From contig JABAQJ010000007.1 in assembly GCA_019186945.1 (NCBI GenBank), positions 496,001 through 560,000 on the forward strand: a stretch of 64,000 bases of DNA, written 5' to 3'. This document shows, piece after piece, positions 36,405-52,566 of this stretch; within the stretch, counting starts at the first letter, position 1; every line of letters begins with the position of its first letter. The DNA comes from Gemmatimonadaceae bacterium. Its GTDB lineage: Bacteria; Gemmatimonadota; Gemmatimonadetes; Gemmatimonadales; Gemmatimonadaceae. The notes under the pieces are model-generated. The model saw only the letters and a program-made list of their open reading frames with translations. It was not told where the DNA came from and did not search any database. Position numbers and translations under genes: made by a program.

Positions 36405-37258
36405 CCTTGCAGTTGCGGTGCGAGAAGAACCGCCGTCAACGCGTCCAGCACCAGAATGTTGACAGAGGTGAGCACGACAGCCTTGGCCGTCGACCTACCC
36501 ACGCCCTCGGCGCCTACGTCAGTCACGTAGCCCTCGTACGAACAGAGGATCGCGATCGCGATGCCGAAGACCGTCGCCTTGATCAGCGAGTAGGCAATCT
36601 GAAAGAGGTTGAACGAGAGCCGCAACCCTTCCGAGAACTGCTGCCAGGTCACGTCCGTCGCGTAAACGGATGTCAGGAACGCCACGCTCACGCCGACGAA
36701 GTTCGCGAAGATCACCAGCAGCGGCAGCATGAACATGCCGGCGAGCACGCGCGGCACGACCAGGTAGGCCACCGGGTCGTAGGACAGCGTCTCCAGGGCG
36801 TCGATCTGTTCCGTGACGCGCATCGTCCCGATCTCTGCGGTCATGCGCGCTCCCACACGTCCTGTGAGCACCAGACCGGTGAGCAACGGCCCGAGCTCGA
36901 GGATGATCATCTGCCGCGAGATCAATCCGACGACCGAAAGCTGGACGCCTGGGAACAACTGGTAGCGCGTCTGCAACGCGATCACCGAGCCTATGAATGC
37001 CGACACGATCACGGTCAGCGGCAGCGATTCGACGCCTATGGCCCGCATCTGCTTGAAGGTCAGCGGTCCATATGTCCGCCACTCTGCGAACAGCGCCCGG
37101 ACCATGTCTCGCATGAAATAGACCCGGGCGCCGATGCCACCGAACACTCCCACGCCCAATTGCGCCATCTGCCGGAAGAACACCAGCCCGGTGCGCTGAA
37201 CGACCGGAAACTCGGATGTCGGCCGGTGGGAACCGAAGAGCGGGGAAGACGTGCTCAC
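36401..37258 (-). CDS. mlaE: MlaE family lipid ABC transporter permease
   Basis: 285 residues with five or six hydrophobic helices. Diagnostic blocks are LTVIVSAFIGSVIALQ, LGPLLTGLVLTGRVGARMTAEIGTM and TEQIDALETLSYDPVAYLVVPR, which match MlaE/YrbE permeases that couple to an ATPase through the EQIDAL coupling helix. It moves phospholipids across the inner membrane in the Mla or Mce-type route. The GTG overlaps the lptG stop and its own stop overlaps the mlaD start, so LPS-type and phospholipid-type transporters are translated as one chain. Confidence 0.93.
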   Translation of the reverse strand: MSTSSPLFGSHRPTSEFPVVQRTGLVFFRQMAQLGVGVFGGIGARVYFMRDMVRALFAEWRTYGPLTFKQMRAIGVESLPLTVIVSAFIGSVIALQTRYQLFPGVQLSVVGLISRQMIILELGPLLTGLVLTGRVGARMTAEIGTMRVTEQIDALETLSYDPVAYLVVPRVLAGMFMLPLLVIFANFVGVSVAFLTSVYATDVTWQQFSEGLRLSFNLFQIAYSLIKATVFGIAIAILCSYEGYVTDVGAEGVGRSTAKAVVLTSVNILVLDALTAVLLAPQLQG

Positions 37259-38349
37259 GTGCGCACGCGGGCCAGCAGGATGAGTCCCGCGATACCGAAC
37301 AGCGCGTTCGGTATCCACGCAGCGATGTCCGGATCGAGCAGCCCCTTGGCGCCGACGGCTTTCGTCAGCTGGATGAGGATCAGGAACACAATGGTAGTAG
37401 CCAGGGAGACGGCGATCCCGTAGGCCGTGCCGCCGCGTTGCGTGCTCGTGGCGAGCGGTGCGCCGAACAAGGCGATGATGATGCAGGTGACCGGAATCGC
37501 CAGCTTCAAGGCTCTCTCGACTCGCAATTCATCCGCGTCCCCGCCCGAGCGTTCGAGCGCGGAAATGTACTTGCCCAGTTCGCGGTACCGCATTTCCTGC
37601 GGTGCCGTGGACGAGCCCAGCATCGCCTTCGGAGTTTCCTGCAACCGACTGTCCCGGAGCGAGTCGAACTTGAACGTGACGTCGGTCGTTCTCGATGGGA
37701 TCACGTGGAGAGTGCCGTCGTGGAGACTCCAGCCGTCCGCCGGCGCCCACTTCGCCGATGTCGCCGTGAGGAGGTACGTCGGATAGCCGGGATCCTGTTC
37801 GCGACCCTTCCGCTCGATCTGGATGTCGTTGATCGTTCCCTGTTCGACGCGCAACGTGGCCACCTTGTACACGCGGCCATGCTCGGCGGCGTACGCGAAA
37901 TTGAACCGCTCGGTGCCGGAAGTGAACTTCACCTCCTGGAGCAGTTCGGAGTGTCGCCGATTGGTGAGCGGCGACAGTTCGCTCATACCTAACGTCAACA
38001 GCCCGGCGAACACCGACGCAACCAGGATCGGGCGGATCACACGGTGAAACGACAGGCCGGATGCCTTGGCCGCGGTTATTTCCGAGTGCCGTGTCAATTG
38101 GCCGATGGTGAACACGGCGGCGAACAGCGTCGCCGCCGGCAGCACCATCGACATGTTGTCCGGGATCCAGTAGAGGTAGCTCTTCGCGATATCGAGACGC
38201 GGCAGGTTCCGGTTGAGGTACTTGTCCAGATTGTCCGTCAGATCGAATACCGTGACGAGGAGCGGGAATCCGATCGCGGTAGCGAAGAAGATCTTCGAGA
38301 ACTCCCGCAGGACATACCGGTCCAGCGGACGGAGGAGATGGCGCCTCAC
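37255..38349 (-). CDS. lptG: LptG-like LPS export permease (YjgP/YjgQ family)
   Basis: 364 residues. Three N-terminal membrane helices (with SMVLPAATLFAAVFTIGQL and RHSEITAAKASGLS), a periplasmic jelly-roll domain (about 130-265) and three C-terminal helices (LAIPVTCIIIALFGAPLA, then two more). This is the LptF/LptG fold that extracts lipopolysaccharide from the inner membrane with the LptB ATPase, which is not nearby. GTG start overlaps the lptF stop (GTGA). A CGTTAGG heptamer supplies a TTA Leu codon in LTLGMS. Confidence 0.9.
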   Translation of the reverse strand: MRRHLLRPLDRYVLREFSKIFFATAIGFPLLVTVFDLTDNLDKYLNRNLPRLDIAKSYLYWIPDNMSMVLPAATLFAAVFTIGQLTRHSEITAAKASGLSFHRVIRPILVASVFAGLLTLGMSELSPLTNRRHSELLQEVKFTSGTERFNFAYAAEHGRVYKVATLRVEQGTINDIQIERKGREQDPGYPTYLLTATSAKWAPADGWSLHDGTLHVIPSRTTDVTFKFDSLRDSRLQETPKAMLGSSTAPQEMRYRELGKYISALERSGGDADELRVERALKLAIPVTCIIIALFGAPLATSTQRGGTAYGIAVSLATTIVFLILIQLTKAVGAKGLLDPDIAAWIPNALFGIAGLILLARVRT

Positions 38350-40181
38350 GCGATCCCCCTCGTGCGCCGGGGAATCCCGAAGCGCAGCAGTCCCTTCAGG
38401 GCGTCCATCAGTTCGTGCATGTCTCCGCCACGGGCGGTCGCACCTTCGCGGCCGATGCGGGACAACATCACCAGGCCCACGATCGTGAACACGATGTTGG
38501 CGGCCCACATGGCCAGCGATGGCGGGACGATGCCGCGGTCGGCGAGTGCCTCGCCGGCAATCAGCCCCACGTAGTAAATCGCGAACACGGCCAGCGAGAC
38601 GCCGATCACCAGACCCACACCGCCACGCGGAAAACGCAACGCGATTGGTGCGCCGATCAGGACGAACACTACGCAGGCGACGGATATCGCGAACTTCTTG
38701 TGCAGCTCCACCGCATTCTGATTGACCTGGCGGCCACTCTCTTCCATTCGCGATCGGGCACCCTCGATCGCGGCAGTGGCGATGTACGGCTGCCCGGGAA
38801 TTGTCCCGGGTAACGGCACCATGCGGTTGATCTGTGGCAGCGACGCCGTGTCCTGTGCTGTCAACTCGCGGATGGTAGCGCCTGTCGACGGTGCAATGCC
38901 CGGCGGCACGACGGGGATCGCTCCCTGCTGCCCTGGAAGCGGTACCGGAACCTGCGGATTGACGTTGGGCGCGATGCGCGACGGATCGATCGCCGGGTTA
39001 GGCCTGGCAGTGTCGGCACGTCCCCGAGTCGATTCGGCTCGGGCAATCGAATCCCGTCTGGCCTTCGCCGTATCCTGTTTCGCGCGCGTCGTGTCCTGTG
39101 TCCGCTCGGCGGCGAACGCGGTGTTGACGAAGAGAGCCACTGCCGAGGGCCGCCGAATCCGCATCCACCGCCGCACAGCTGCAGACAGATCGCAATAGGC
39201 GCGCCCCAGCGAGGCATGGCGCGAGCGCGGCGCAAGCGCCCCCGGCACATTGGGAACGGCAGAGCCCTGATCGATGGTCATTGTGGCCTGCTGTCCAGTC
39301 GCGGCCTCGCGCGCGGCGCCGGCCAGCGCCTCGCGCAGTTCTCCTCGTGCCCGATCGTATTCCATCTCGTTCCGCGACACCTCGTTCTGCAGCTCGCACA
39401 CAGACATCTCCCGATCGCTCTTGAAGTTGTCTTCTCCCGCGGTCAGGTCCAGCTGGTTGGCGACGTCGGGGGCTCGCACGTAGTCAGTGTTGAAGTAGAG
39501 ACGCTGCAACTGCAATGGATCCTGCTTCGAGACCTCGAGCAGATGACCGGAATTGAGTGTCAGGATCAGATCCTTGCCGTTCGGCGCGAACGCCATCTCG
39601 CCGCTGTCCGCATAGATGGTCCGACGTCGCAGAGGATCCCCGAGGTCGTAGATCGTGACTTCGCGCATGCGATTGCTGAACTCGTCCAGGTGACCGGCGC
39701 GAAGGAACAACTTCCCCGGAGAGACTTCGTTGAGTACTTGCTCACGGAGCGCGAACGTGGGCTTCTTGCGCGCGATGTCACCCTGCAGCGTCCGAAGACG
39801 ATGGTTGGACCGGGGCAGTACCTGGTCGTTGAACAGAATCATCAGGATCGAAAGCACAGACGCCGCGATCAGCACCGGGACGGTCAGCCGCGCGAGACTG
39901 ATCCCGGAGGCCTTAAGTGCCGTGATCTCGTTTTCCGCTGCCAGCCGGCTGAAGGCATAGAGCGTGGAGACGAGCACGGCCATCGGCATGGTCATCGCAA
40001 GCGTGAACGGTACGGAGAGCGCGAAAAACTCGCCGATTACGGTCCACGGCAGCCCCTTTCCGACCAGATTGCCGAACTGCTTGGCTATGTAGTTCAGGAG
40101 AAGCAGAGACGTCAGGGCGGAGAGCGCGAAGAAGAGCGGTCCGGCGTGCTCTCGCAGCACATACTTGTGGATTATCTTCAC
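38346..40181 (-). CDS. lptF: LptF-like LPS export permease with long disordered insertion
   Basis: 611 residues, far longer than the usual 360-400. N-terminal helices with KYVLREHAG and SRLAAENEITALKASGISL, then a periplasmic jelly-roll, are standard. Between about residues 280 and 500 lies an extra low-complexity region rich in Ala, Arg, Pro and Gln (repeated RAESTRGRADT and PVPLPGQQG types), before the three C-terminal helices (KKFAISVACVVFVLIGAPIALRFPRGG in part). The GTG at 40181 starts the recognisable protein. It is the first gene of the lptF-lptG-mlaE-mlaD chain and is divergent from sprA. Confidence 0.9.
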   Translation of the reverse strand: MKIIHKYVLREHAGPLFFALSALTSLLLLNYIAKQFGNLVGKGLPWTVIGEFFALSVPFTLAMTMPMAVLVSTLYAFSRLAAENEITALKASGISLARLTVPVLIAASVLSILMILFNDQVLPRSNHRLRTLQGDIARKKPTFALREQVLNEVSPGKLFLRAGHLDEFSNRMREVTIYDLGDPLRRRTIYADSGEMAFAPNGKDLILTLNSGHLLEVSKQDPLQLQRLYFNTDYVRAPDVANQLDLTAGEDNFKSDREMSVCELQNEVSRNEMEYDRARGELREALAGAAREAATGQQATMTIDQGSAVPNVPGALAPRSRHASLGRAYCDLSAAVRRWMRIRRPSAVALFVNTAFAAERTQDTTRAKQDTAKARRDSIARAESTRGRADTARPNPAIDPSRIAPNVNPQVPVPLPGQQGAIPVVPPGIAPSTGATIRELTAQDTASLPQINRMVPLPGTIPGQPYIATAAIEGARSRMEESGRQVNQNAVELHKKFAISVACVVFVLIGAPIALRFPRGGVGLVIGVSLAVFAIYYVGLIAGEALADRGIVPPSLAMWAANIVFTIVGLVMLSRIGREGATARGGDMHELMDALKGLLRFGIPRRTRGIA

Positions 40182-40259
40182 GCGCGAAGGTCTGGTCGAC
40201 GTCAACGAGCCGGAATTGGAGGCTGCGCTCGCCACGTGAAAGGCGCGCCGCCGCCAGCC

Positions 40260-40288
40260 TTGTCCAGCCAAACGGGTGGGAATATAAG
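40260..40288 (+). promoter_or_regulatory. sigma70-type promoter of sprA
   Basis: TTGTCC (40260-40265), a 17-base spacer, then TATAAG (40283-40288). The predicted start near 40295 gives a leader of about 65 nt before the GTG at 40359. It lies in the 177-bp spacer between divergent lptF and sprA; no lptF promoter was obvious. Confidence 0.7.
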
Positions 40289-40358: not shown

Positions 40359-43300
40359 GTGCGTCCAACTTTCCTGATCGCGATCCTGCTAACGGTCAGC
40401 CGGGGTGCCGCGGCCAGTGCTGGGGAAAGGGCGAGCCGGATCGATCTGCCTGCGTCAGGCACGATGCCATTGCTCCGCTCTGGGCAGGACACGGTTCGCA
40501 TACGTCGCGACTCGGCCAGTGCGGACTCGACCGGTCGCGACACGTCCGTTGTCCGCGATTCGGTGGCGCGGGATCTCACGGTCGACCTGCTGACCAGGCT
40601 CGAAGCCCGCGGCGAGCGCGCCAAGAACAGCCGATGCTTTGCGAGCCAGCTGTCCAACTCCACGTTCTCCTGCCGGGCGCGCTTTGCCCCGACGCTGAAC
40701 TTCCAGTACACGCTGCGCTCTTCTGGCACGGTTGCCGATCGGTTTCACGTTGACGTCGACTATGACTCGCAGCGCGAGTTCGACGGCTCCAACAATATCT
40801 CGCTCCACTACCAGGGACGGCCCGGGCAGTTTCTTCAGCGAGTGGACGTCGGCAACGTATCCTTCGCACCGCCCAACTCCCGCTTTCTGACTTCCGGTAT
40901 CCCCAGCGGGAACTACGGCGTGCAACTGGTCGCGCAACGCTCACGCCTCACGACGAGGCTGATCGTGGCACAACAGAAAGGCAACGTGGTGAAGGATCAG
41001 GTATTCCACGTCGGCGCACGCACCTCGCAGCGCATCGAGCGGGACATCGACGACTATCAGATAGAGCCGCGGCGCTTCTTCTTCACCGTGGATCCGGCAC
41101 TGTTCGGAGCGGCCTACCCGAACCTCGACCTGCTCGATGCCAGACAGATGGCCGCGGTCGCCAACGCTCTGCCGGACACGGTGCGCCCCGCTCGGGTGTT
41201 TCTCTACCGACTGATCCTGGGCGGGCAACCGCCCAACCCGAACGGCCCCCGGTTCCAGCTGATTGGCGACCCCGACTCGCATCGCGGGCAGGTATACGAA
41301 CTGCTGCGGGAGAACGTCGACTACTACGTTGACCCATCGCAATTGTGGGTTGCGCTGGTGCGTCCGCTGGCGCTGGCCAACGAGCGCCTGGTCGTGGCGT
41401 ACACGGTGCGTACGAATGGCGTGGAGCGGACGATTCCGTTCGTTGGCGGGACACCAGACCTCGAATACGTTCCCGACCGCGATCAACTGGCACAACTGAT
41501 CTGGGATCCGCAGGTCACGCCCGATCACGCGGCGTTTCGCCGCGAGATCCGCTCCATCTATCGGTTGGGTGGCGAAGACCTCCGCCGCGAATCGGTGACC
41601 CTCCGGATCGTCGCGGGAGCGGGTCTTGACCAGGAGAAGCCGCCCGGTGGAGCGGGCGTCAGCTATCTCGCGATGTTCGGCGTTGCCCAGGTCACTAACC
41701 CGGTTGCCTTCGACGTCGAGAACCGCGTTTGGCCACGGCCCTCGGATCCGAACTTCGCCGCGTCGGGCGCAGCAGGAGCGCGGATCATACGCGACCGCTT
41801 TCTCGTCTTCCCGTCGCTCGAACCGTTCGCGCGGCGTGGGCTGGCGCAGTCGCCCACGGTGCCGGCCAACGACACACTGTATCGCACGCCGAGCGAGTAC
41901 TTGTACTCGACACAGCATCCGCAGGCGCTGTACCGCATCCACGCGACCTACGAAGTCGAGGCTACGGCGGGCACTGGGACGATCGCCCTCAACTCGATCC
42001 AGTTACGACCGGGATCGGAACGCATCTCGATGGACGGGCGACCGCTCGTCCGGGAAGTCGACTATACGATCGACTACGACCTTGGCCGCGTGACTCTCCT
42101 GCGGCCGGATACCCTGGGCATCCAGGCAAAGCGGGTGGTGGTGCGTTATGAGGAGAACCCGCTGTTCGCCGCGGTTCCGACATCGATCATCGGACTCAGT
42201 TCGGAGTACGCGTTAGGCCCCGGCACCATCGGGATCATGGCCTTGTCGCAGTCGCAACGATCGAACCTCACGCGGCCGACCCTCGGGTTCGAACCACAGG
42301 CGTCGCTCACGGCCGGAGTCACGGCGGATCTCCAGTGGCGGCTCCCAGGCCTGGCCAAGGCCCTCGGCAGAGTCGCACCGCGCGCCGACAGCGTCACGAC
42401 TCCGCGCCTTCACCTTCGCGCTGAGCTGGCCGTGAGCCAGCCGCGCCAGCGAGGCGCGCAGCAGGCGTATCTGGAGAGTTTCGAGAGCGATGGCGGGGTC
42501 GCCATCCCACTTTCCGACCAGCGATGGGAATATTCGTCGCAGCCGTCGCTGGGACGCGCCCTGGCGTCCCGTCTCGGCAGCGTCCTCGACCTGTCGCGGG
42601 CGGCGACGCTGGCCTTCCAGGCAAACGGCACCGATCGCGGCGGTCGCGCAGTCGTATTTCGAGTGAACGACGTCGACACGCTGGCGACGCTCGTCGGTTC
42701 GGGTCTTGCGCCCCCGGAACAGATGTTGTGGCTGACTCTATACCCGCTCGGCATCGGCGGATTGCGCGATCCCGCGTCCGGACGCTATCGCTGGACCGCT
42801 GCGCACCAGCCGGCCGGTCGCCGATGGCGATCGATCAGGACGGCGTTAGGTACCGGCGGGTCCGGCGTCGATCTCTCGCGCGTCGAACAGATCGAGTTCT
42901 GGACGCTCGTGGAGACCGATCCCGCCCGCCGCCGCCAAAATCCACTCGTGGTGCTCGATTTTGGCGATGTCTCGGAGAACTCCGTACTCATTCAGCCGGA
43001 TACTCTTTCCGTCGCCGGCGCGGACTCGAGCTATACCGGGCGCCGAGTCGTAGGCATGGACCGGCTCGACTCCGAGCGCGACCAGTTCTCCCGCGCGTTC
43101 GCTGCCGACGTGAACGACCTCGGCCTCCCCGGCGATCGGGCTGATTCAATGACGGTCTTCGGCTCGAATCCGTCGGTCGTTCGCGGTCTCGCGGTCTGCA
43201 CGTCACCAGGAGGACAGATCCAGCGCCTCGGCGACTCGCGCGCGAACTGCACGGTTGGCAACAACCGGTTGGACGAGGAGGACATCGACCTGGATGGCGC

Positions 43301-46300
43301 GCTGAATCTCACAACGGCTCAGCGCGAGCAGGAGCGCATCCGCCGCTACGTGATCGACCTTGCCGATCCCGCGGCAATCGGGCGGATCGGCAAGTGCGGA
43401 ACCGTCGTGCGCGACATCAACGACGCCCTCCAGCCCTCGCCGACGCGCTGCTGGGTTCAGGTTCGCATCCCGTTCGTCGCCGCCACGGACACTATAGCAG
43501 GCGGCCCCCCGCTGCGGCGTGTCCGCGCCGTGCGAGTCACGGTCGTCTCTCCGGCGTCCGCAGCCGACGACGAGTTCGTGACCATCCCGCTGGCGCGGTT
43601 TCGCCTGACGGGCGCAGCGTGGCTCAAGCGCTCCTCGCAGCCGCTCCGCGGGATCGCCGGCACGGAACAATCCATCGGCGGCTATGTACTCGCGGCGTCG
43701 ATCGGCACACAGGACCGCGACTCCCTGCGCGGACTGGTCTACGAGCCACCGCCGGGCGTAAGCGACGAAGCAGAGCAGCAGCAAGTCTTCGGCTCCTCCA
43801 TGATCCAGATCAACGAGCGGTCGATGCGTCTGCTGGCAGGCGGCATGTCCCGGTACGATCGCGCCGAAGCGTTTACGCGGTTCGCCGAGGGGCAACGAAG
43901 CGTGATGACGTACCGCGAACTTCGGCTGTGGGCGAGAGGACGCGGACGCGGCTGGGGAGCACAGGGTGACCTGCAGTTCTACGTCAAGCTCGGCAGGGAT
44001 GCCAACAACTTCTACGCCTACCGCACTCCCATCAACACCGGACCGGGTCGAAGCGCCTGGGAGCCGGAAATTCGTGTCAGATTCGACAAGTTCTACGCAC
44101 TCCGATCCCGGCTGCAGGACGCCTGGCTCAAAGGGCAACGGGACTCGTTAGGATGCTCGGCCGCCGACTCGGCGCTGGTTGCGGCATCCGGGCTGCCCCA
44201 GAACACCAGGCTGGATCGGTACGTCGCCTGCGACGATGGATACATGGTCTATACGATCGATCCCGCGATCGCACCGCCGAACCTCGCCTCCGTGCAGGAA
44301 ATGGCCGTCGGTATCGTGCGCGTCGACTCACTTGCCGGCGCCGACCCGCCGCTCCCGAGCGATACGGCCGAAGTGTGGGTCGACGATATCCGCCTTGCCA
44401 GCGTCGTGAGCGAAACCGGATACGCAGCGGAAATCGGAGCGACGCTCGATGCCGGCGCGTTCGGCACTCTCCGAGTCCGCGCGTCCCGCCGCGATCCGCA
44501 TTTCCGCCAGTTGGGCGAGCAGGCGAATTACCTGACGAGCAACGATCTGGAGATCGCCGGCACCCTGCAGCTCGAACGATTCCTGCCTCACGACGTAGGG
44601 ATCAGCATCCCGTTGACCGTACTGCACACGACCGCTGGTGCCACACCGCTCTTTCTCTCGAGATCGGATATCCGGGGCGCGGACATTACGGACCTCCGAT
44701 CGCCGCGATCGTCGTTGACGACTTTCACTCTCGGACTCAGACGTCGCACGCCGATGACCGGCCCACTCGCTCCGCTGGCCAACAACCTCGGCGTAAACGC
44801 TGTGTGGAACAGCAACGGCAACCGTAGCGAATTCCAGACAGGGAGGGTGCGCGATTTCAACGTCGGCATCGAGTACCTCGGTGTGAGTGAGACGCCGCAG
44901 GGCGGCGCCGGCGTCGGCCAGTTTGTCGCCGCTATCCTCGGTGGGGCCAAGCCACCCGGCACGGCGCTATGGCCGACGAGCGCGCACGTCAGCAGCAACC
45001 TCGAACGAGGTACCGATCGACGCGAATCGTTCCTCAAGCCGGCGTCGGCGTTCGACGACACGGCACGTGTCGCCACCGGCGAAACCTACGTCTGGCGCAC
45101 GAGCACCAACATCGAGTTCCGTCCGCTGGCGGGAGTCAGTGCCCGCTGGGATGCGCTGACACTGCGCGACTTGCGCAACTACGCCGCGTCGCCGTCTGCC
45201 GGGCTTCCCAGCGGGCTGGAGCAGAGCCGGGTCGCTGGCCTCGACCTGGGATTCGAGCGCGAACGCCGCATGTCGGCATCGCTCGTCTACGCCCCCGTCC
45301 CAGCTGGCTGGTTCCGCCCGCGACTCGACCTTGGATCCAGCTACAACATGCTTCGCGATCCCAACAACCGATCGTTCGACACCACCGGTTCGGTGCCGAC
45401 ACTGGCCCGACGCTTCGGCAACACACAGCGCATCAGCGCCACTGCCGTGATTGACCTTCAGACTTATGCCGAGTCGCTGATGAACGCGAGTCCCCTGACC
45501 GGACGATTGCTGCGGGCGATCACGCCGATCGATGTGTCCGTTACCCGCGATCTCCTCACAGCGTACGACGGGGCCCGGCTTTCTCCCTCCTTCGGTTTCC
45601 AGTTCGGCCTCGGAGGCATCGATGCCTTCCGGGCGTTCGACGGCGTCATGGCGGCGAGCGCCGGTTCAGCCACGACCTGGACGCTGAGCAACAGCGTCGC
45701 GCTGCCTTGGGGGACGGCGCTCACGGGCCGTGTGCAGCATGGCACTTCGCGCCAGTGGGCGCGCCAGCTTGCCGGTCGCCAGCTTCCGTTGGATGGCGAG
45801 CAGCAGCTTCTCCCCGACGTCACCCTGCGCTGGATGGGACGTCCGCAGTTGTTGAGCGGTATACTATCGAGAGTGGGTACGTCCCTGCGCTACGTCGACT
45901 CAAAGCAGGCGTTCATGGCGCCGCCGCCGTACAGCGGAGCAAGCGCGGAGCGTCGTACGACGCGCCTGCGAAGCTGGCCCCTGACGGCGAATGCCGTGAC
46001 CACCTGGGGGAACCTGACGCTGTCGGGCGCATTTGCGCGGTCCGAGCGCACGGACTCCCTGCCTGGGAGTGTCGGCGTGTCGTCGTCGTCGGACCTGACG
46101 ACAGAGGTCTCGCGCGCTTTCTCGCTTCCCGAATCGTGGGACTTCCAGAGCAACCTCAGGACGCGCCTGAGCTACCAGCGCTCGGAGTCCCAGAGCTACG
46201 TTTCCAACGTCGCGGCGGCAGCGTCGCGCAGCCGCCTCACGGACAACGGGAGGACATCGTTCTCGTTCAATGCAGATACCGACGTCGCGGACAACATGAC

Positions 46301-46418
46301 CTTCTCCGTACAGGGATCCAGAGTGGTGACGTTCGACCGGAACTTCAACCGGCGATTCACCCAGGTCATCGTGTCGGCCGTGCTGCAGATTCAGTTCTTC
46401 GGTGGAGCCCTGAGGTGA
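40359..46418 (+). CDS. sprA: SprA-family outer membrane protein (T9SS translocon homologue)
   Basis: 2,019 residues. A basic/hydrophobic signal segment (about 1-22) leads into an exported protein made of very long beta-barrel and repeat regions. Family features include the early block NFQYTLRSSGTVADRFHVDV and an FSFNADTDVADNMTFSVQG segment near the end. The protein ends in strands (VSAVLQIQFFGG). In Bacteroidetes, SprA is the huge outer-membrane channel of the type IX secretion system. Gemmatimonadota carry homologues, but no other T9SS gene lies in this window. The GTG at 40359 gives the signal; the frame is open for another 1.1 kb upstream through lptF, which is antisense read-through. Four TTA Leu codons lie in CGTTAGG heptamers. 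Confidence 0.86.
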   Translation: MRPTFLIAILLTVSRGAAASAGERASRIDLPASGTMPLLRSGQDTVRIRRDSASADSTGRDTSVVRDSVARDLTVDLLTRLEARGERAKNSRCFASQLSNSTFSCRARFAPTLNFQYTLRSSGTVADRFHVDVDYDSQREFDGSNNISLHYQGRPGQFLQRVDVGNVSFAPPNSRFLTSGIPSGNYGVQLVAQRSRLTTRLIVAQQKGNVVKDQVFHVGARTSQRIERDIDDYQIEPRRFFFTVDPALFGAAYPNLDLLDARQMAAVANALPDTVRPARVFLYRLILGGQPPNPNGPRFQLIGDPDSHRGQVYELLRENVDYYVDPSQLWVALVRPLALANERLVVAYTVRTNGVERTIPFVGGTPDLEYVPDRDQLAQLIWDPQVTPDHAAFRREIRSIYRLGGEDLRRESVTLRIVAGAGLDQEKPPGGAGVSYLAMFGVAQVTNPVAFDVENRVWPRPSDPNFAASGAAGARIIRDRFLVFPSLEPFARRGLAQSPTVPANDTLYRTPSEYLYSTQHPQALYRIHATYEVEATAGTGTIALNSIQLRPGSERISMDGRPLVREVDYTIDYDLGRVTLLRPDTLGIQAKRVVVRYEENPLFAAVPTSIIGLSSEYALGPGTIGIMALSQSQRSNLTRPTLGFEPQASLTAGVTADLQWRLPGLAKALGRVAPRADSVTTPRLHLRAELAVSQPRQRGAQQAYLESFESDGGVAIPLSDQRWEYSSQPSLGRALASRLGSVLDLSRAATLAFQANGTDRGGRAVVFRVNDVDTLATLVGSGLAPPEQMLWLTLYPLGIGGLRDPASGRYRWTAAHQPAGRRWRSIRTALGTGGSGVDLSRVEQIEFWTLVETDPARRRQNPLVVLDFGDVSENSVLIQPDTLSVAGADSSYTGRRVVGMDRLDSERDQFSRAFAADVNDLGLPGDRADSMTVFGSNPSVVRGLAVCTSPGGQIQRLGDSRANCTVGNNRLDEEDIDLDGALNLTTAQREQERIRRYVIDLADPAAIGRIGKCGTVVRDINDALQPSPTRCWVQVRIPFVAATDTIAGGPPLRRVRAVRVTVVSPASAADDEFVTIPLARFRLTGAAWLKRSSQPLRGIAGTEQSIGGYVLAASIGTQDRDSLRGLVYEPPPGVSDEAEQQQVFGSSMIQINERSMRLLAGGMSRYDRAEAFTRFAEGQRSVMTYRELRLWARGRGRGWGAQGDLQFYVKLGRDANNFYAYRTPINTGPGRSAWEPEIRVRFDKFYALRSRLQDAWLKGQRDSLGCSAADSALVAASGLPQNTRLDRYVACDDGYMVYTIDPAIAPPNLASVQEMAVGIVRVDSLAGADPPLPSDTAEVWVDDIRLASVVSETGYAAEIGATLDAGAFGTLRVRASRRDPHFRQLGEQANYLTSNDLEIAGTLQLERFLPHDVGISIPLTVLHTTAGATPLFLSRSDIRGADITDLRSPRSSLTTFTLGLRRRTPMTGPLAPLANNLGVNAVWNSNGNRSEFQTGRVRDFNVGIEYLGVSETPQGGAGVGQFVAAILGGAKPPGTALWPTSAHVSSNLERGTDRRESFLKPASAFDDTARVATGETYVWRTSTNIEFRPLAGVSARWDALTLRDLRNYAASPSAGLPSGLEQSRVAGLDLGFERERRMSASLVYAPVPAGWFRPRLDLGSSYNMLRDPNNRSFDTTGSVPTLARRFGNTQRISATAVIDLQTYAESLMNASPLTGRLLRAITPIDVSVTRDLLTAYDGARLSPSFGFQFGLGGIDAFRAFDGVMAASAGSATTWTLSNSVALPWGTALTGRVQHGTSRQWARQLAGRQLPLDGEQQLLPDVTLRWMGRPQLLSGILSRVGTSLRYVDSKQAFMAPPPYSGASAERRTTRLRSWPLTANAVTTWGNLTLSGAFARSERTDSLPGSVGVSSSSDLTTEVSRAFSLPESWDFQSNLRTRLSYQRSESQSYVSNVAAAASRSRLTDNGRTSFSFNADTDVADNMTFSVQGSRVVTFDRNFNRRFTQVIVSAVLQIQFFGGALR

Positions 46419-46420
46419 GA

Positions 46421-47320
46421 ATGCTTGCCTGGTGCTGCGCGCTCTGGACCCTGTTGGGCTGTGCCCGGAGCGAAGCAAGTGGCAGCCGCAGCGGACCGTT
46501 CAACGGGCAAGCCGCGCTCGGCTATGCGAAAGCTCAGGTGGATTTCGGGCCGCGCGTCCCGGGCACGGACGCGCATCGCCTGGCCGGAGACTGGATCGTG
46601 GCCCGGATGAGAGAGCGTGCGGACACCGTCATCGAACAGACGTGGACACATCGCACCGCCGCTGGAAGGGACCTGCCGATGCGAAACGTGCTGGCACGTT
46701 TCCGACCCGATGTGGCCGAACGAATCCTGTACGTCACACACTGGGACTCCCGCCCGACGTCGGACTCGGAAACGAACGATGCCTTGCGAATGCAGGCCGT
46801 CCCCGGGGCGAACGATGGCGCATCCGGCGTTGGTCTGTTCGTCGCGTTAGGTGACGTGTTGAAGAAGACGCCACCGTCTGTCGGTGTGGACCTGCTGTTC
46901 GTCGACGGCGAAGACTACGGTAACTTCGACAAGAACGAGGACGTCCTCATCGGTTCGCGTTACTTCGCCGAGCACCTGCCCGCAGCGAACTACCAGATCC
47001 TGTTCGGCGTGTTGTGGGACATGATTGGCGATGCCGACTTGCAAGTCTACCAGGAAACGCATTCGCTGGAACGCGCACCGGAAGTGGTTTCCCGGGTCTG
47101 GCAGACGGCGGCGGATCTCGGCTACTCTCGGTGGTTCATTCCCGAGTCGCGCTATACGGTCACCGACGACCACCTTCCCCTGCTCGACAAGGGTCTGCGC
47201 GTCATCGACGTAATCGACCTCGATTATCCGGCGCACCACACGACGCGGGATACGATCGATCGCGTTTCGGCCAACTCCCTGAAGATCGTCGGGGACGTCG
47301 CCTACGCGCTCGTCCGCTGA
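46421..47320 (+). CDS. M28-family glutaminyl cyclase-like lipoprotein
   Basis: 299 residues. The ATG at 46421 has GAGGTGA just upstream; a GTG at 46415 overlapping the sprA stop is the alternative. The lipobox LLGC predicts a lipoprotein. The single-zinc alpha/beta domain carries VTHWDSR (His), GANDGASG (Asp), DGEDYG (Glu), MIGDAD (Asp) and DYPAHHTT (His), the pattern of glutaminyl-peptide cyclotransferases and related M28 enzymes. In Bacteroidetes, T9SS cargo is commonly cyclised at N-terminal Gln by such a protein, so pairing with sprA is striking. That functional link is an inference. Confidence 0.88.
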   Translation: MLAWCCALWTLLGCARSEASGSRSGPFNGQAALGYAKAQVDFGPRVPGTDAHRLAGDWIVARMRERADTVIEQTWTHRTAAGRDLPMRNVLARFRPDVAERILYVTHWDSRPTSDSETNDALRMQAVPGANDGASGVGLFVALGDVLKKTPPSVGVDLLFVDGEDYGNFDKNEDVLIGSRYFAEHLPAANYQILFGVLWDMIGDADLQVYQETHSLERAPEVVSRVWQTAADLGYSRWFIPESRYTVTDDHLPLLDKGLRVIDVIDLDYPAHHTTRDTIDRVSANSLKIVGDVAYALVR

Positions 47321-47452: not shown

Positions 47453-48160
47453 ATGGCGACTCCTGCCGAACGACGAGCCCTTGGCGCATGCTGTGCTATC
47501 CTCGTATGCGGTCTGACACTCCGCGCATGGAGTGCATCGCGAACGCCCGCCGCTCCGGCCACCGCAGGACTGGATGCGCACATCGCGGCCATCGAGAGCT
47601 TGCGGCAGAAAGGCCCGCGGGGATCTCCGCGACGAGCGAAGAAGACCAAGGCCAGCCGCGGCGGGAGCGCGGATACGATGATTGCGACCCCAAGAACGCC
47701 CGCAGTTGGCGACACGATCGTTGACGTCGATGTGGCGTCCGCGGCCGAACTGGAACGGCTCCCGGGAATCGGTCCATCGCTTGCCATGCGCATCGTGGCC
47801 AGGCGCGACTCCTGCGGCGCTTTCGGAGGGATGGATGGACTGGACCAGGTCCGGGGGGTGGGGCCGTCGTTGCTGCGTCAACTCGAACGTCGGATACGGT
47901 TCTCCCGGATTCCAGACGGGCGTTGTGTGCATCCAGAGCAACGACCGGCGCGCGATGCCGGCGAGTCCGGTCAAAGTGACCTTTGGGGCCGCGATGCGTC
48001 CCTCAGGTGCGGTTTCGGGGTGGATCGAACGCTCCGTCCGCCACACATCGACGCAGTACCTCGAACTTCCCGATCTCGGTCCGCCCGCGGTCAGCGGTGC
48101 GAACGAGTCACGCGCGTAAGTCGCGCACACAACTCCACTTTCCTTCGCCCTTCGAATCTC
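47453..48160 (+). CDS. ComEA-like helix-hairpin-helix segment in frame with pilB
   Basis: From an ATG at 47453 an N-terminal membrane segment (about 10-28), an Ala/Lys/Arg-rich linker, and one HhH DNA-binding module (about 95-155: VASAAELERLPGIGPSLA, then VRGVGPSLLRQLERRI) resemble ComEA, the DNA receptor of natural transformation. No in-frame stop separates it from pilB: the frame continues through about 75 unconserved residues into the PilB ATG at 48161. Either the ComEA part and PilB form one 852-residue protein, or a frameshift hides the ComEA stop (the next frame ends at 48119). Confidence 0.55.
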
Positions 48161-50011
48161 ATGGCCGCGACGGCCTCGGCAGGTCCCGAGCGCATCACGG
48201 AGCAACTGATACGCGAGGGCATTGTCGCCAAAGACGCCGTCGACAAGGCGCAGCGTGAGTCCAAGTCGAACGGCCTTTCGCTCCATTACAATCTCATCAA
48301 GCTTGGGCTGATCGACGAGGTGGCGCTGACGAAAGCCATCGCCCGTACGTCGCGCATGCCCGCGGTTGACCTCACCAGATTCGAGGTCGATCCACGCATC
48401 CTCAAGCTGGTCCCGGCGGAACTCGCCGTGAAGCACCAGGTTCTGCCGCTCAAGCGCGACGGTCGAACGCTCACTGTCGCGATCGCCGACGCGTCGAACC
48501 TTGGCGTACTGGAGGATCTGAAGTTCATAACGCGGTATGACATCTTCCCGGTGCTCGCCGGCGAGGTCACACTCCGGAGCGTAATCGAGAAGAACTACGA
48601 TTCCACGGATACCGCGATGACGTCGCTGCTCGCGGACATCGCGGGCCTCGAGGGCGACGTCGAAGTCGTGGAGGAGCACGAGGAGGACGTCAGCGCGGCC
48701 GCGCTCGCCGCGCAGGTGGACGATGCTCCGGTGGTGAAGCTGATCAACGCGATCCTGACGGATGCGGTGAAGCGAGGTGCCAGCGACATCCACTTCGAAT
48801 GTTTCGAACACGAACTGCGGGTTCGCTATCGCATCGACGGGGCGCTTCAGGAAGTGATGAAGCCCCCGCCGAAGCTGAAGGCTGCCCTCATCTCCCGCTT
48901 CAAGATCATGGCGCAGCTTAACATCGCCGAGCGCCGCGTCCCGCAGGACGGGCGCATCAAGTTGAAGATGGGGAACAAGGTCATCGACTATCGCGTTTCC
49001 ACGCTGCCAACGCTCTTTGGCGAGAAGGTGGTGCTGCGAATCCTCGACAAGGGCAACCTGACTCTCGAACTCGAGAAGTTCGGTATCGAGCCGCGCGCCG
49101 AGCGTGAACTGATGGAAGCCGTCTCGAACCCGTATGGCATGGTGCTCGTGACTGGCCCCACCGGTTCGGGCAAGACGACGACGCTCTACTCGGCGCTCTC
49201 CAAGATCAACAACATCGACGTCAACATCATGACGTCGGAAGATCCCGTCGAATACAACCTGTTCGGCATCAATCAGGTCCAGGTTCGCAGCGATATCGGC
49301 ATGACGTTTGCCGCGGCGCTCAAGGCGTTCCTGCGCCAGGATCCGAACATCATCATGGTTGGCGAGATTCGAGATCTGGAGACTGGTGGAATCGCCATCA
49401 AGGCCGCGCTCACCGGTCACCTCGTTCTTTCCACCCTGCATACCAACTCGGCACCGGAGACGGTAACGCGTCTGCTGGACATGGGGCTGGAGCCGTTCAA
49501 CGTTGCGTCGGCGTTGAACCTTGTGCTGGCGCAGCGACTGGTCAGGAGGATCTGCAAGCACTGTAAGACCAAGTACCAGCCTGACGAGTTGGAACTGGGT
49601 GGCGCGAAGGTCACCACCGGGACGCGACTCCGGGATCTGCGATTCACGGAGGAAGCGATCGCGTCGGCCCGGGAGACGGCAACAGTCGAAGCGAAGCCGT
49701 ACATGGAGCAGGTGACGCTCGATTCGTGCGTGGGCGACTTGCCGTTCTTCAAAGGGCGCGGATGCGACGAGTGCGCCGATACCGGTCTCAAGGGACGTCA
49801 GGGTCTCTACGAGGTGATGCTGATGGGGCCGGAACTGCGCAAGCTGATTCTTCAGAACGTCGGCGCCCAGGAGATCAAGGACACTGCAATCCAGCTGGGG
49901 ATGCTCACACTTCGCATGGACGGCTGGCTCAAGGTCATGAAGGGGATCACGACCCTGGAGCAGGTCATTCGCGAGACGAGCGCTGACACGCAGTCGCGCG
50001 ACGTCGAGTGA
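48161..50011 (+). CDS. pilB: type IV pilus assembly ATPase PilB
   Basis: 616 residues from the ATG at 48161. An N-terminal T2SSE_N domain (about 8-145; ITEQLIREGIVAKDAVDKAQ in part) leads to the ATPase core: Walker A GPTGSGKTTTL, Asp box, Walker B IIMVGEIRDLETGGIA and the His box LSTLHTNSAP. A tetra-Cys zinc site (CKHCKTKY and GRGCDECADTG) is the usual PilB/GspE feature. It powers pilus extension. The gene order pilB-pilT-pilC is classical for type IV pili, and the ComEA-like segment upstream supports use in DNA uptake. Confidence 0.95.
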   Translation: MAATASAGPERITEQLIREGIVAKDAVDKAQRESKSNGLSLHYNLIKLGLIDEVALTKAIARTSRMPAVDLTRFEVDPRILKLVPAELAVKHQVLPLKRDGRTLTVAIADASNLGVLEDLKFITRYDIFPVLAGEVTLRSVIEKNYDSTDTAMTSLLADIAGLEGDVEVVEEHEEDVSAAALAAQVDDAPVVKLINAILTDAVKRGASDIHFECFEHELRVRYRIDGALQEVMKPPPKLKAALISRFKIMAQLNIAERRVPQDGRIKLKMGNKVIDYRVSTLPTLFGEKVVLRILDKGNLTLELEKFGIEPRAERELMEAVSNPYGMVLVTGPTGSGKTTTLYSALSKINNIDVNIMTSEDPVEYNLFGINQVQVRSDIGMTFAAALKAFLRQDPNIIMVGEIRDLETGGIAIKAALTGHLVLSTLHTNSAPETVTRLLDMGLEPFNVASALNLVLAQRLVRRICKHCKTKYQPDELELGGAKVTTGTRLRDLRFTEEAIASARETATVEAKPYMEQVTLDSCVGDLPFFKGRGCDECADTGLKGRQGLYEVMLMGPELRKLILQNVGAQEIKDTAIQLGMLTLRMDGWLKVMKGITTLEQVIRETSADTQSRDVE

Positions 50012-50168
50012 CGGCCGTCGGCGCCGGTGACGCGGCTCACGGCCGCCTGCGCCGCGTCGTGACCCAAGCGACCGCTGGCAAGTCGATATGGTGGCTCGCG
50101 CTCCGGAAGCGCGGGAACTGTCCCATGGCAGATCGATGCAATCACCCGTCGGGCCTTCCGCGGTACCC

Positions 50169-51323
50169 ATGAACCGAACGACCGCGCCAACCAGCGTGAA
50201 TCTGCGCGCGCTCCTCGAGGAGATGATCGAGCGAGACGCCTCCGACCTCCACATTACCGCTGGCGAGCGCGCCAAGCTTCGGGTGGATGGGGACATCACC
50301 AACAGCAACCAGGACTACATCCTCACGCCGAAGGATTCGTTGCAGCTGGCATATTCCGTCCTGACCGAGAACCAGAAGAAGCGCTTCGAGATGGAGGACG
50401 AGCTCGACTTCTCGTTCGGAATACAGAATCTGGCGCGGTTCCGTGGCAACGTCTTCAAGCAGCGCGGCTGCGTCTCGATGGTCATCCGGCAGATTCCCTT
50501 CACGATCCGCACTTTCCAGGATCTGAACTTGCCGCCAGTCATCTCGCGTATGGCCGAAAAGCCGCGCGGCCTCGTGCTGGTGACGGGTCCCACGGGATCC
50601 GGAAAGTCGACCACGCTGGCCGCTATGATCGACAAGATCAATCGCGAACGGCAAGGTCACATCATCACCGTGGAGGACCCAATCGAGTTCATCCACCGAC
50701 ACCAGCAGTGCATCGTGAACCAGCGGGAGGTCGGGACGGACACGAAGAGTTTCGCCAACGCGTTGAAATACGCGTTACGCGAGGATCCTGACGTTATCCT
50801 CGTCGGAGAAATGCGGGATCTGGAGACGATCCAGGCCGCGCTGACGATCGCCGAAACCGGGCATCTGGTGTTCGCGACGTTGCACACCAATTCGGCGGCG
50901 GAGGGGATCAACCGCATTATCGACGTATTCCCGAGCCATCAGCAGCCGCAGGTGCGTGCACAGCTGGCGTTCGTGCTGGAGGGCATCGTGACGCAGTGCC
51001 TGGTTCAGAAGGCACGAGGACGCGGCCGGGCAATGGCCGCCGAGATCCTGGTGATCACACCGGCGATCCGCGCCTTGATCCGTGACGACAAGATCCACCA
51101 GGTCTACTCGATGATGCAGTCGGGCAAGAAGTTCGGCATGCAGACGCTGAACGACGCCCTGTATCAGCTGTACGTGGCGCGCGAAGTGAGCGAGGAAGAG
51201 TGTCTCCGGGTCACGTCGGACCAGGTCGAATTTCTGCGGATGATCGGCCGCCATGTCGTCGACGAGGACGAGACCGGGACAATGAAGGGGGCCCGCGCTG
51301 CAGGCGCCCTTGGCCGCCGCTGA
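50169..51323 (+). CDS. pilT: type IV pilus retraction ATPase PilT
   Basis: 384 residues. It retracts pili for twitching and DNA uptake. Signatures: ASDLHITAGE, Walker A GPTGSGKSTTLAAMID, Asp box EDPIEF, Walker B DVILVGEMRDLETI, His box FATLHTNSA, and the PilT-specific AIRALIRDDKIHQVYSMMQ region. It has an acidic, disordered C-terminal tail (DEDETGTMKG onwards) longer than in E. coli-type PilT. The ATG at 50169 is preferred; the frame extends upstream without similarity. Confidence 0.96.
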   Translation: MNRTTAPTSVNLRALLEEMIERDASDLHITAGERAKLRVDGDITNSNQDYILTPKDSLQLAYSVLTENQKKRFEMEDELDFSFGIQNLARFRGNVFKQRGCVSMVIRQIPFTIRTFQDLNLPPVISRMAEKPRGLVLVTGPTGSGKSTTLAAMIDKINRERQGHIITVEDPIEFIHRHQQCIVNQREVGTDTKSFANALKYALREDPDVILVGEMRDLETIQAALTIAETGHLVFATLHTNSAAEGINRIIDVFPSHQQPQVRAQLAFVLEGIVTQCLVQKARGRGRAMAAEILVITPAIRALIRDDKIHQVYSMMQSGKKFGMQTLNDALYQLYVAREVSEEECLRVTSDQVEFLRMIGRHVVDEDETGTMKGARAAGALGRR

Positions 51324-51369
51324 CATCCAGCGTCGACCGAGCCTAACGACTTTCTCAGGGTAGTGACCG

Positions 51370-52566
51370 ATGCCGGCATTCACTTACACCGCACGTACCG
51401 CCCAGGGCGACCTCCGCACCGCGACGATCGACGCGCCGTCCCGCGAGGACGTGGTCGCTCAGCTGCGTCGCCAACGCATGAGCGTCGTCAAGGTCGATGA
51501 AGACGCGAAGAAGAAGCGTGCCAGAAAGGGCGGCATCAAGATGCGTGACATCGTCATCTTCACGCGTCAATTCTCGACGATGATCAACGCCGGCCTCCCG
51601 CTGGTACAGGCGCTGGACATCCTGGCGAAGCAGTCGGAGAACAAGGTGCTGGCGGACGTGACCCGAGCCGTCGTGTTCGACGTCGAGTCGGGCCTCACGG
51701 TGGCCGATGCGCTGGCCAAGCACCCTAACGCCTTCAGCGAACTCTATGTGAACATGGTCGCCGCCGGTGAAGCCGGCGGTATCCTCGACACGATCCTCAT
51801 GCGCCTGGCGACGTTCATGGAAAAGAACGATGCCCTCGTGCGGAAGGTGAAAGGGGCCATGATCTACCCAGCGGTCATCATGAGCGTCGCCGCGATCGCC
51901 ATCGCCGTCCTGCTGATCTTCGTGATCCCCGTATTCGAGTCGATGTTCGCATCGGTGGGACTGGCCCTTCCGCTGCCCACACGCGTGGTGATCGGCATGT
52001 CGCGGTTCCTGAAAGGGTATTGGTACGTGCTTGGCGCGGCCACAGGGGTCTTCGTGTATCTGCTCCGACGCTATCACGCGACGCCCAACGGAAAGCTTAC
52101 CATCGACCGCGCCCTGCTGCGCTTTCCGGTATTGGGCGACGTGCTCCGAAAGTCGGCCGTGTCCCGCTTCACCCGCACGTTAGGCACGCTGATTTCGTCC
52201 GGCGTGAGCATCCTCGACGGACTCGAAATCACCGCCAAGACGGCTGGAAACCGCGTCATCCAGGACGCTATCATGGCATCTCGCGCCAGCATCGCCGGCG
52301 GCGAAACGATCGCCACTCCGCTTGCCAAGTCCAATGTCTTTCCACCGATGGTCATCTCCATGATCGCCGTCGGCGAGCAAACTGGCGGACTGGACGAAAT
52401 GTTGTCCAAGATCGCGGACTTCTACGACGAAGAAGTGGATGCGGCGGTCAGCGGACTGCTGTCCCTGCTCGAGCCGGTCATGATCGTCTTCCTGGGAGTC
52501 GTCGTCGGCGGCATGGTGGTCGCCATGTACCTTCCGATTTTCGACATGATCAACGCGGTGCAGTAA
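51370..52566 (+). CDS. pilC: type IV pilus inner membrane platform protein PilC
   Basis: 398 residues, two GspF/PilC domains (about 60-185 and 262-385) each ending in membrane helices, and a basic N-terminal tail. Key segments are FTRQFSTMINAGLPLVQALDIL, YVNMVAAGEAGG, and FTRTLGTLISSGVSILDGLEI with VISMIAVGEQTGGLDEML. It anchors the pilus machine for PilB and PilT. Start at 51370 follows AGGGTAGTGACCG; a CCTAACG heptamer lies 22 bases upstream. One TTA Leu codon is in a CGTTAGG heptamer at 52178. Confidence 0.96.
   Translation: MPAFTYTARTAQGDLRTATIDAPSREDVVAQLRRQRMSVVKVDEDAKKKRARKGGIKMRDIVIFTRQFSTMINAGLPLVQALDILAKQSENKVLADVTRAVVFDVESGLTVADALAKHPNAFSELYVNMVAAGEAGGILDTILMRLATFMEKNDALVRKVKGAMIYPAVIMSVAAIAIAVLLIFVIPVFESMFASVGLALPLPTRVVIGMSRFLKGYWYVLGAATGVFVYLLRRYHATPNGKLTIDRALLRFPVLGDVLRKSAVSRFTRTLGTLISSGVSILDGLEITAKTAGNRVIQDAIMASRASIAGGETIATPLAKSNVFPPMVISMIAVGEQTGGLDEMLSKIADFYDEEVDAAVSGLLSLLEPVMIVFLGVVVGGMVVAMYLPIFDMINAVQ

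What the first reader, a model, noticed from the sequence alone, without database searches (positions are those of the whole stretch)
40359..47320. SprA homologue paired with a glutaminyl-cyclase-like lipoprotein
SprA is the channel of type IX secretion. The gene directly after it encodes an M28 QC-like lipoprotein, and Gln cyclisation of T9SS cargo is known in Bacteroidetes. No other T9SS gene is in the window. Either a reduced T9SS exists in this phylum, or SprA has another job.
Basis: partly seen in the sequence, partly recalled or inferred. Interest (0 to 1): 0.55.

Follow-up and report, generated by a model that had tools for sequence, protein, structure and literature searches.

The report
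Motor-less type IX secretion translocon gene
The window carries a genuine gene for the outer-membrane channel of type IX protein secretion, in a bacterial phylum where that system is hardly described; partner and cargo-type genes are there but the known motor was not found, and the enzyme gene beside it appears to serve exported proteins in general rather than this channel.

Summary
Both genes are real. 40359-46418 (+) is SprA (TIGR04189, 616 bits, cut-off 200). 46421-47320 (+) is a type II glutaminyl cyclase (QC) lipoprotein starting two bases after the sprA stop.

(1) A reduced T9SS is supported. In 150 genomes of the phylum SprA occurs in 106. It travels with PorV-family genes (E <= 1e-15: 97 of 106 SprA+, 3 of 44 SprA- genomes; at E <= 1e-3: 105 and 23). 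CTD-type proteins exist: two candidates in the own genome, one a CTD-only protein whose profile matches 110 of 144 genomes outside family f9. GldL, GldM, GldN: 0 of 150 each; whole-genome control for GldM only.

(2) A functional SprA-QC pair is not supported. QC lies near sprA in 51 of 72 genomes, but occurs in 75 of 106 SprA+ and 31 of 44 SprA- genomes (odds ratio 1.0). Of 9 tested genomes without this QC, 8 carry the unrelated propeller QC; 0 of 5 with it do. Exported proteins show Gln after the predicted signal-peptide cut at 5.9 times background, so QC probably serves a phylum-wide Q-rule.

How such a translocon is powered is the open question.

The parts
40359..46418 (+). sprA: T9SS outer-membrane translocon homologue, 2019 aa
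   Evidence: TIGR04189 616 bits; PDB 6h3i 4.9e-24; SprA_N
40359..40421 (+). predicted SprA signal peptide (MRPTFLIAILLTVSRGAAASA|GERA); no Gln at +1 here
   Evidence: heuristic candidate site
46421..47320 (+). QC: type II (M28) glutaminyl cyclase lipoprotein, 299 aa, starting two bases after the sprA stop
   Evidence: start from DNA printed; zinc ligands and catalytic residues kept
46460..46462 (+). lipobox cysteine codon of QC (TLLG|C)
   Evidence: direct reading of the sequence
38346..40271 (-). LptF/LptG-family gene, called lptF here (context: divergent neighbour of sprA in most loci read)
   Evidence: PF03739; synteny
37255..38508 (-). LptF/LptG-family gene, called lptG here (context)
   Evidence: PF03739
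47453..50011 (+). one open frame holding a ComEA-like HHH domain and PilB (context)
   Evidence: HHH_3, MshEN, T2SSE
50088..52566 (+). pilT (50088-51323) and pilC (51370-52566) (context)
   Evidence: T2SSE, T2SSF

Best explanation
The gene is the outer-membrane translocon (SprA) of a reduced type IX-like secretion module in what I take to be the phylum Gemmatimonadota. Inferred working: Sec exports a protein whose signal peptide is cut before a Gln; the QC lipoprotein cyclises that Gln, as it does for exported proteins in general; the C-terminal Ig-like CTD is recognised in the SprA pore by a PorV-family barrel, and the protein leaves sideways with the shuttle. In the window's genome the PorV-family match is G000:C8:234987-235622 (gene L052 9733-10722, -) and the best cargo candidates are a CTD-only protein (G000:C6:77069-77407) and a 344-aa protein with a CTD-like tail (L285 4887-5921). 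The known GldL/GldM motor and GldN ring protein were not found, so energy comes from unrelated proteins, from homologues too diverged to see, or release is passive. Shown: gene identities, co-occurrence, locus structure, Gln enrichment. Inferred: secretion, direction of transport, cyclisation, absence of a motor.
For: SprA identity. SprA in 106/150, PorV family at E <= 1e-3 in 128/150. With PorV counted at E <= 1e-15: 97 both, 9 SprA only, 3 PorV only, 41 neither (OR 147); in family f1 37/0/1/15, and the one exception, G040, has its QC hit at base 4 of its contig, so sprA may lie in a gap. Within genus g9 one of 5 genomes (G057) and within g7 one of 2 (G071) lacks SprA, strong PorV and the CTD-only protein together (G057 keeps a weak PorV hit, 4.0e-7); sprA absence is seen directly in the G057 locus (L206). 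Giant CTD proteins (1272-1464 aa in seven complete frames) lie directly before a PorV gene in f1 and f2 genomes. Six f9 genomes have 11-33 TIGR04183 hits and 5-14 PorV hits each. The CTD-only profile matches 110 of 144 non-f9 genomes and is tied to SprA, 92/8/18/26. GldM, GldL, GldN 0/150 each; GldM control 4 of 4 Flavobacterium genomes; all three models ring on Flavobacterium proteins.
Against: No secretion data. The own CTD-only protein scores 20.7 bits, under the TIGR04183 cut-off of 23; two orthologues score 26.7 and 23.9, and the second of these (L288) is from G033, a genome without SprA. The own genome has no TIGR04183 hit at E <= 1e-3. CTD and FlgD Ig folds are related, and the 344-aa protein passes the FlgD_ig cut-off (29.6 against 27). 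The CTD-only profile still matches 18 of 44 SprA- genomes. Nine SprA+ genomes lack a strong PorV hit, and at E <= 1e-3 23 SprA- genomes have some PorV hit. The own PorV-family protein is far below the PorV equivalog cut-off (48.8 against 250). The Gld models are equivalogs controlled on Flavobacterium only; GldL and GldN had no whole-genome control. Statistics are not corrected for shared ancestry.
Confidence: 0.7

Rival explanations
1. A complete T9SS is present, with GldK-N homologues too diverged for the NCBIfam models.
For: f9 genomes look like rich T9SS users; energy is needed for substrate release in Flavobacterium (passages of PMC10994853); controls used Flavobacterium only.
Against: SprA itself is found over the cut-off in 103 of 150 genomes by a model of the same library, yet GldL, GldM and GldN give 0 of 150 each at E <= 1e-3.
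Confidence: 0.35
2. SprA and QC are a dedicated pair: QC modifies T9SS cargo and was selected to stay beside sprA.
For: Two-base spacing; QC within 8 kb of the listed SprA match in 51 of 72 genomes with both placed.
Against: Presence uncorrelated (OR 1.01); in 12 SprA-less loci QC lies in the same place; propeller QC in 8 of 9 tested genomes lacking this QC, all 8 of them SprA+; Gln enrichment is general; none of the 80 Flavobacteriaceae sprA loci held (up to 10 kb either side of the match) has a QC match.
Confidence: 0.08
3. SprA here has another job, e.g. with the neighbouring Lpt or type IV pilus genes.
For: sprA sits between lptFG and an HHH/pil run in most loci read with enough flank.
Against: The Lpt and Pil genes are in place in the 12 SprA-less loci read, whereas strong PorV hits go with SprA; the three f9 sprA loci show no pil match beside sprA.
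Confidence: 0.12
4. The M28 protein is an aminopeptidase, not a QC.
For: Pfam names only M28, and NCBIfam gives only sub-cut-off aminopeptidase and desuccinylase matches; the position of PgQC Trp298 is His here.
Against: PDB matches named glutamine cyclotransferase at 7e-60; the Asp zinc ligand that PMC7948796 calls bacteroidal-QC-specific is kept in all 11 sequences of the phylum aligned; mutually exclusive occurrence with an unrelated QC in 13 of 14 genomes tested.
Confidence: 0.05

Closest known systems
Type IX secretion system of Flavobacterium johnsoniae / Porphyromonas gingivalis
   Same: SprA translocon, PorV-family shuttle, type A-like CTD with Sec signal peptide
   Different: No GldL, GldM or GldN detected; sprA sits between lptFG and an HHH/pil run; outside f9 few CTD proteins were found per genome, one of them CTD-only; giant CTD protein next to a PorV gene
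Type B CTD / SprF cognate pairs of F. johnsoniae (PMC12618676, abstract and passages)
   Same: Cargo gene next to its shuttle gene
   Different: Here the shuttle is PorV-family and the CTD type A-like; in F. johnsoniae all type A CTDs are handled by PorV
Bacteroidetes type II glutaminyl cyclase, PgQC/TfQC (PMC7948796, passages)
   Same: M28 by sequence, zinc ligands Asp/Asp/His, catalytic Glu and Asp, lipoprotein
   Different: Trp298 position is His in the three f1 sequences aligned; starts two bases after sprA; in other genomes of the phylum the type I propeller QC occurs instead
Bacteroidetes Q-rule (PMC5837995, PMC10653852, passages)
   Same: Gln enriched right after the signal peptide
   Different: PMC5837995 calls it Bacteroidetes-specific but reports single high values elsewhere (Ignavibacterium album 77%, three Chlorobi outliers); neither main text contains 'Gemmatimonad'. 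Weaker here, by a cruder method

Membership tests
SprA/Sov translocon family | Over the curated cut-off of the equivalog TIGR04189 | tested here: met
   616 bits against 200
SprA/Sov translocon family | 36-strand barrel with lateral opening | not testable with these tools
   2019 aa exceeds the 1200-aa folding limit
Canonical type IX secretion system | SprA translocon | tested here: met
Canonical type IX secretion system | PorV shuttle | tested here: inconclusive
   own protein over the PorV/PorQ subfamily NF033709 (112 bits, cut-off 90) but below the PorV equivalog NF033710 (48.8 against 250); co-occurs with SprA
Canonical type IX secretion system | CTD-bearing cargo | tested here: inconclusive
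   own genome: two CTD-type proteins below the TIGR04183 cut-off; over cut-off in 35 of 150 genomes; no secretion shown
Canonical type IX secretion system | GldL/GldM motor | tested here: not met
   0/150 each; GldM control 4/4 genomes, GldL model control only
Canonical type IX secretion system | GldN ring protein | tested here: not met
   0/150; model control only
Canonical type IX secretion system | GldK, SprE/PorW, SprT, SkpA, PorP/SprF, PorU sortase | not tested
   not among the 12 genome searches made
Type II glutaminyl cyclase | M28 domain with Asp, Asp, His zinc ligands and catalytic Glu/Asp | tested here: met
   residues named in PMC7948796, mapped by my alignment to 6qql
Type II glutaminyl cyclase | Active-site Trp298 (PgQC numbering) | tested here: not met
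   His in the window protein and the two other f1 sequences; Trp in the other 8 of the phylum
Type II glutaminyl cyclase | Cyclisation activity | not testable with these tools
   needs enzyme assay
Q-rule | Gln enriched at +1 after signal peptidase I cleavage | tested here: met
   5.9x in genomes with M28 QC, 8.8x in the own genome, heuristic predictor; most proteins in the Bacteroidetes sense was not shown

The most novel reading that the evidence does not exclude
A type IX translocon that works without the Gld motor and ring, exporting very few proteins, among them a CTD with no passenger that is found in 92 of 100 SprA+ genomes outside f9 and may be a component of the machine rather than cargo; and a Q-rule kept up by two unrelated glutaminyl cyclases that replace each other.
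Probability: 0.4. Interest if true: 0.78.

Novelty: new variant of a known kind. Interest (0 to 1): 0.58.

Why it matters
The genome survey I could read found T9SS in 60 of 97 Bacteroidetes genomes and none elsewhere (PMC4793230, passages). [quoted passage not shown] A phylum with SprA, PorV-family and CTD proteins but no detectable GldL/M/N would be a natural test of which parts are essential and what powers release. The exchange of two unrelated QCs with the Gln signature retained is a natural argument that N-terminal pyroglutamate matters for the cell envelope in general, apart from T9SS.

Tried and rejected
Considered and rejected: a dedicated SprA-QC pair. The CTD protein before PorV in f2 as PorU: Pfam gave no domain, NCBIfam only tail matches, all below cut-off, and no PDB sequence matched. 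Own-genome cargo by TIGR04183: nothing at E <= 1e-3; a CTD profile built from the phylum found it. A first Q-rule count with a single-site rule gave Gln in 8 of 27 (own), 3 of 19, 2 of 12, 1 of 15, 0 of 13 (G075) in genomes with the M28 QC and 4 of 11, 5 of 15, 4 of 13, 0 of 17 (G058) in genomes without; membrane proteins diluted it and it was replaced. The Gln sites printed were looked for by pattern, so that listing is illustration, not a test. The scan of named genomes kept 80 loci, nearly all named Flavobacterium, the rest Flavobacteriaceae or [Flexibacter], so other phyla were not compared.

Full report
What is there. The window lies at G000:C2:496001-560000. The gene at 40359-46418 (+) is SprA by every sequence test used: TIGR04189 616 bits, cut-off 200, Pfam SprA_N, and the Flavobacterium SprA structures. 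The next gene, ATG 46421 to 47320, is an M28 protein whose best PDB matches are named glutamine cyclotransferase. Its zinc ligands and catalytic residues, as named in PMC7948796 (passages) and mapped by my alignment, are kept in all 11 sequences of the phylum that I aligned; the Trp298 position is His in the three f1 sequences and Trp in the other eight. Two bases separate the genes.

Which phylum. The tools name no organism. Contig lengths of G019 (4,636,964) and G080:C2 (5,311,527), seen, match what I recall for Gemmatimonas aurantiaca T-27 and Gemmatirosa kalamazoonensis; I therefore speak of Gemmatimonadota, from recall.

The locus. In most loci read with enough flank, sprA lies between divergent lptF/lptG and an HHH-pilB-pilT-pilC run; some f5 loci match only part of the pil genes, the three f9 loci show HHH and lptFG but no pil match, and the f7 locus L079 shows no lpt match. 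QC follows sprA directly in 5 of 5 f2 loci with downstream sequence, the one f3 and one f8 locus, 2 of 3 f4 loci and 11 f1 loci; it does not in the 8 f1 loci L002-L009 (seven of genus g4 and G144), 9 f5 loci, one f7 and three f9 loci (the other f1 loci are too short downstream to tell). For 72 of the 75 genomes with both genes both positions were listed: 51 have QC within 8 kb of the SprA match on the same contig, 2 over 1 Mb away, 19 on another contig.

sprA comes and goes, QC stays in place. I read 12 of the 31 genomes that have QC but no SprA match (L192-L201, L206, L207; chosen because they have QC, so this shows position, not retention). In all 12 QC lies between lptF and pilB and no SprA match is found (HHH gave no match in L196 and L197, and L197 ends inside pilB). 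Over 150 genomes SprA and this QC are independent: 75 both, 31 SprA only, 31 QC only, 13 neither, odds ratio 1.01. Of 14 genomes tested for the unrelated beta-propeller QC (PF05096), 8 of 9 lacking the M28 QC have it and 0 of 5 with the M28 QC have it; by hand, Fisher one-sided p = 9/3003, about 0.003. The exception, G034, has neither.

Q-rule. With a simple signal-peptide rule that does not look at +1, Gln is the most enriched +1 residue in every group: 5.9-fold in genomes with the M28 QC (78 of 207 proteins have a Gln at some candidate site), 5.6-fold in genomes without it (46 of 120), 8.8-fold in the own genome (13 of 28), 8.2-fold in Flavobacterium (121 of 142, from closely related loci). 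By family and QC class the any-site share ran from 17% to 56% (lowest: f9 2 of 12, f4/7/8 without QC 1 of 6, then f5 without QC 10 of 40). Counting only the first candidate site gives far less: 14 of 101 in f1 with QC, 14 of 74 in f1 without, 10 of 70 in f2/f3, against 108 of 142 in Flavobacterium. An earlier, stricter count gave none in two genomes, G058 (17 proteins) and G075 (13). So enrichment is clear, the true share is not known. The Q-rule papers (passages) call it Bacteroidetes-specific while reporting single high values elsewhere, and argue that cyclisation does not direct T9SS targeting. My data fit that: QC is for exported proteins at large.

SprA and PorV. NF033709 rings in 128 of 150 genomes, 93 over its cut-off. 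Counting E <= 1e-15: 97 both, 9 SprA only, 3 PorV only, 41 neither; at E <= 1e-3 it is 105/1/23/21. In f1, 53 genomes of 21 genera, it is 37/0/1/15. Within g9 one of 5 genomes (G057) and within g7 one of 2 (G071) lacks SprA, strong PorV and the CTD-only protein together; G057 keeps a weak PorV hit of 4.0e-7, and G071 also lacks the M28 QC. In f1 I saw two PorV settings: an era-PorV-(partner)-GGDEF-Zn-ribbon run, which is the own genome's (L052), and directly after a giant CTD protein (L084, L085, L089-L091).

CTD proteins. TIGR04183 rings in 40 of 150 genomes, 11-33 times in each of six f9 genomes, not in the own genome. In f2/f3 a giant CTD protein, PorV, a GWxTD protein and often a lipoprotein-like gene lie 12-22 kb from sprA in the six genomes whose listed coordinates put PorV and SprA on one contig near each other (G030, G036, G043, G044, G050, G077). 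Complete giant frames are 1272-1464 aa (seven; L085's open frame runs to 1904, three others are cut). A profile of such tails rang in 41 of 59 f1 genomes at E <= 0.01 and gave two weak hits in the own genome, 3.1e-4 and 6.1e-4. One is a 158-residue frame: predicted signal peptide with Gln after the cut, then only a CTD ending LRKMIVQK, near genes that look like selB and clpB by eye. It scores 20.7 bits with TIGR04183, below the cut-off of 23; two orthologues score 26.7 and 23.9, the latter from the SprA-less G033. I read six such proteins; a profile of them matches once in each of 110 of 144 non-f9 genomes at E <= 1e-6, in open frames of 144-315 aa where listed: 92 of 100 SprA+ and 18 of 44 SprA-. 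The other own hit is a 344-aa protein beside an smc-like gene (by eye) whose tail passes FlgD_ig.

Motor. GldM 0/150 with 4 of 4 Flavobacterium control genomes; GldL 0/150 and GldN 0/150, with the models ringing on Flavobacterium proteins but no whole-genome control. This does not prove absence. In Flavobacterium, energy is needed to release substrate from SprA (PMC10994853, passages).

Literature. See Why it matters for PMC4793230, PMC11205867 and PMC11285876. My searches for SprA, T9SS, type IX secretion or Por secretion with Gemmatimonad-type terms and for glutaminyl cyclase with Gemmatimon (no paper) turned up no description of the points above in the listings and the passages opened; most listed papers were seen as listings only, and papers outside the held open library were not searched.

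Verdict. SprA and QC confirmed; a reduced T9SS-like module is likely; the QC link is positional rather than functional; not filed as a canonical T9SS because the motor test was not met.

Noticed in passing
G000:C6:77069-77407 (L284 7067-7540, -): CTD-only exported protein; its profile matches once in each of 110 of 144 non-f9 genomes, 18 of them without SprA. Why it persists without SprA is unexplained.
   Followed up: partly
L052 8858-9733 (-): A 291-aa protein directly after the own PorV-family gene, with similar proteins beside that PorV in several f1 loci; no Pfam or NCBIfam match at E <= 0.01.
   Followed up: no
L053 7351-8796 (+); similar genes in L055, L056, L057, L058, L103: GWxTD-domain protein directly or closely after the PorV gene in f2/f3 loci.
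   Followed up: no
window 47453-50011 (+): HHH (ComEA-like) and PilB regions share one open frame of 852 aa here, whereas they were called as separate genes in most relatives.
   Followed up: no
L285 4887-5921 (+): 344-aa protein beside an smc-like gene with a CTD/FlgD-like tail; similar smc-linked proteins in L294 and L295.
   Followed up: partly
f9 genomes G001, G003, G005, G007, G009, G011: Rich in T9SS CTD hits (11-33) and PorV hits (5-14) with no GldL/GldM/GldN match: a good place to look for another motor.
   Followed up: partly
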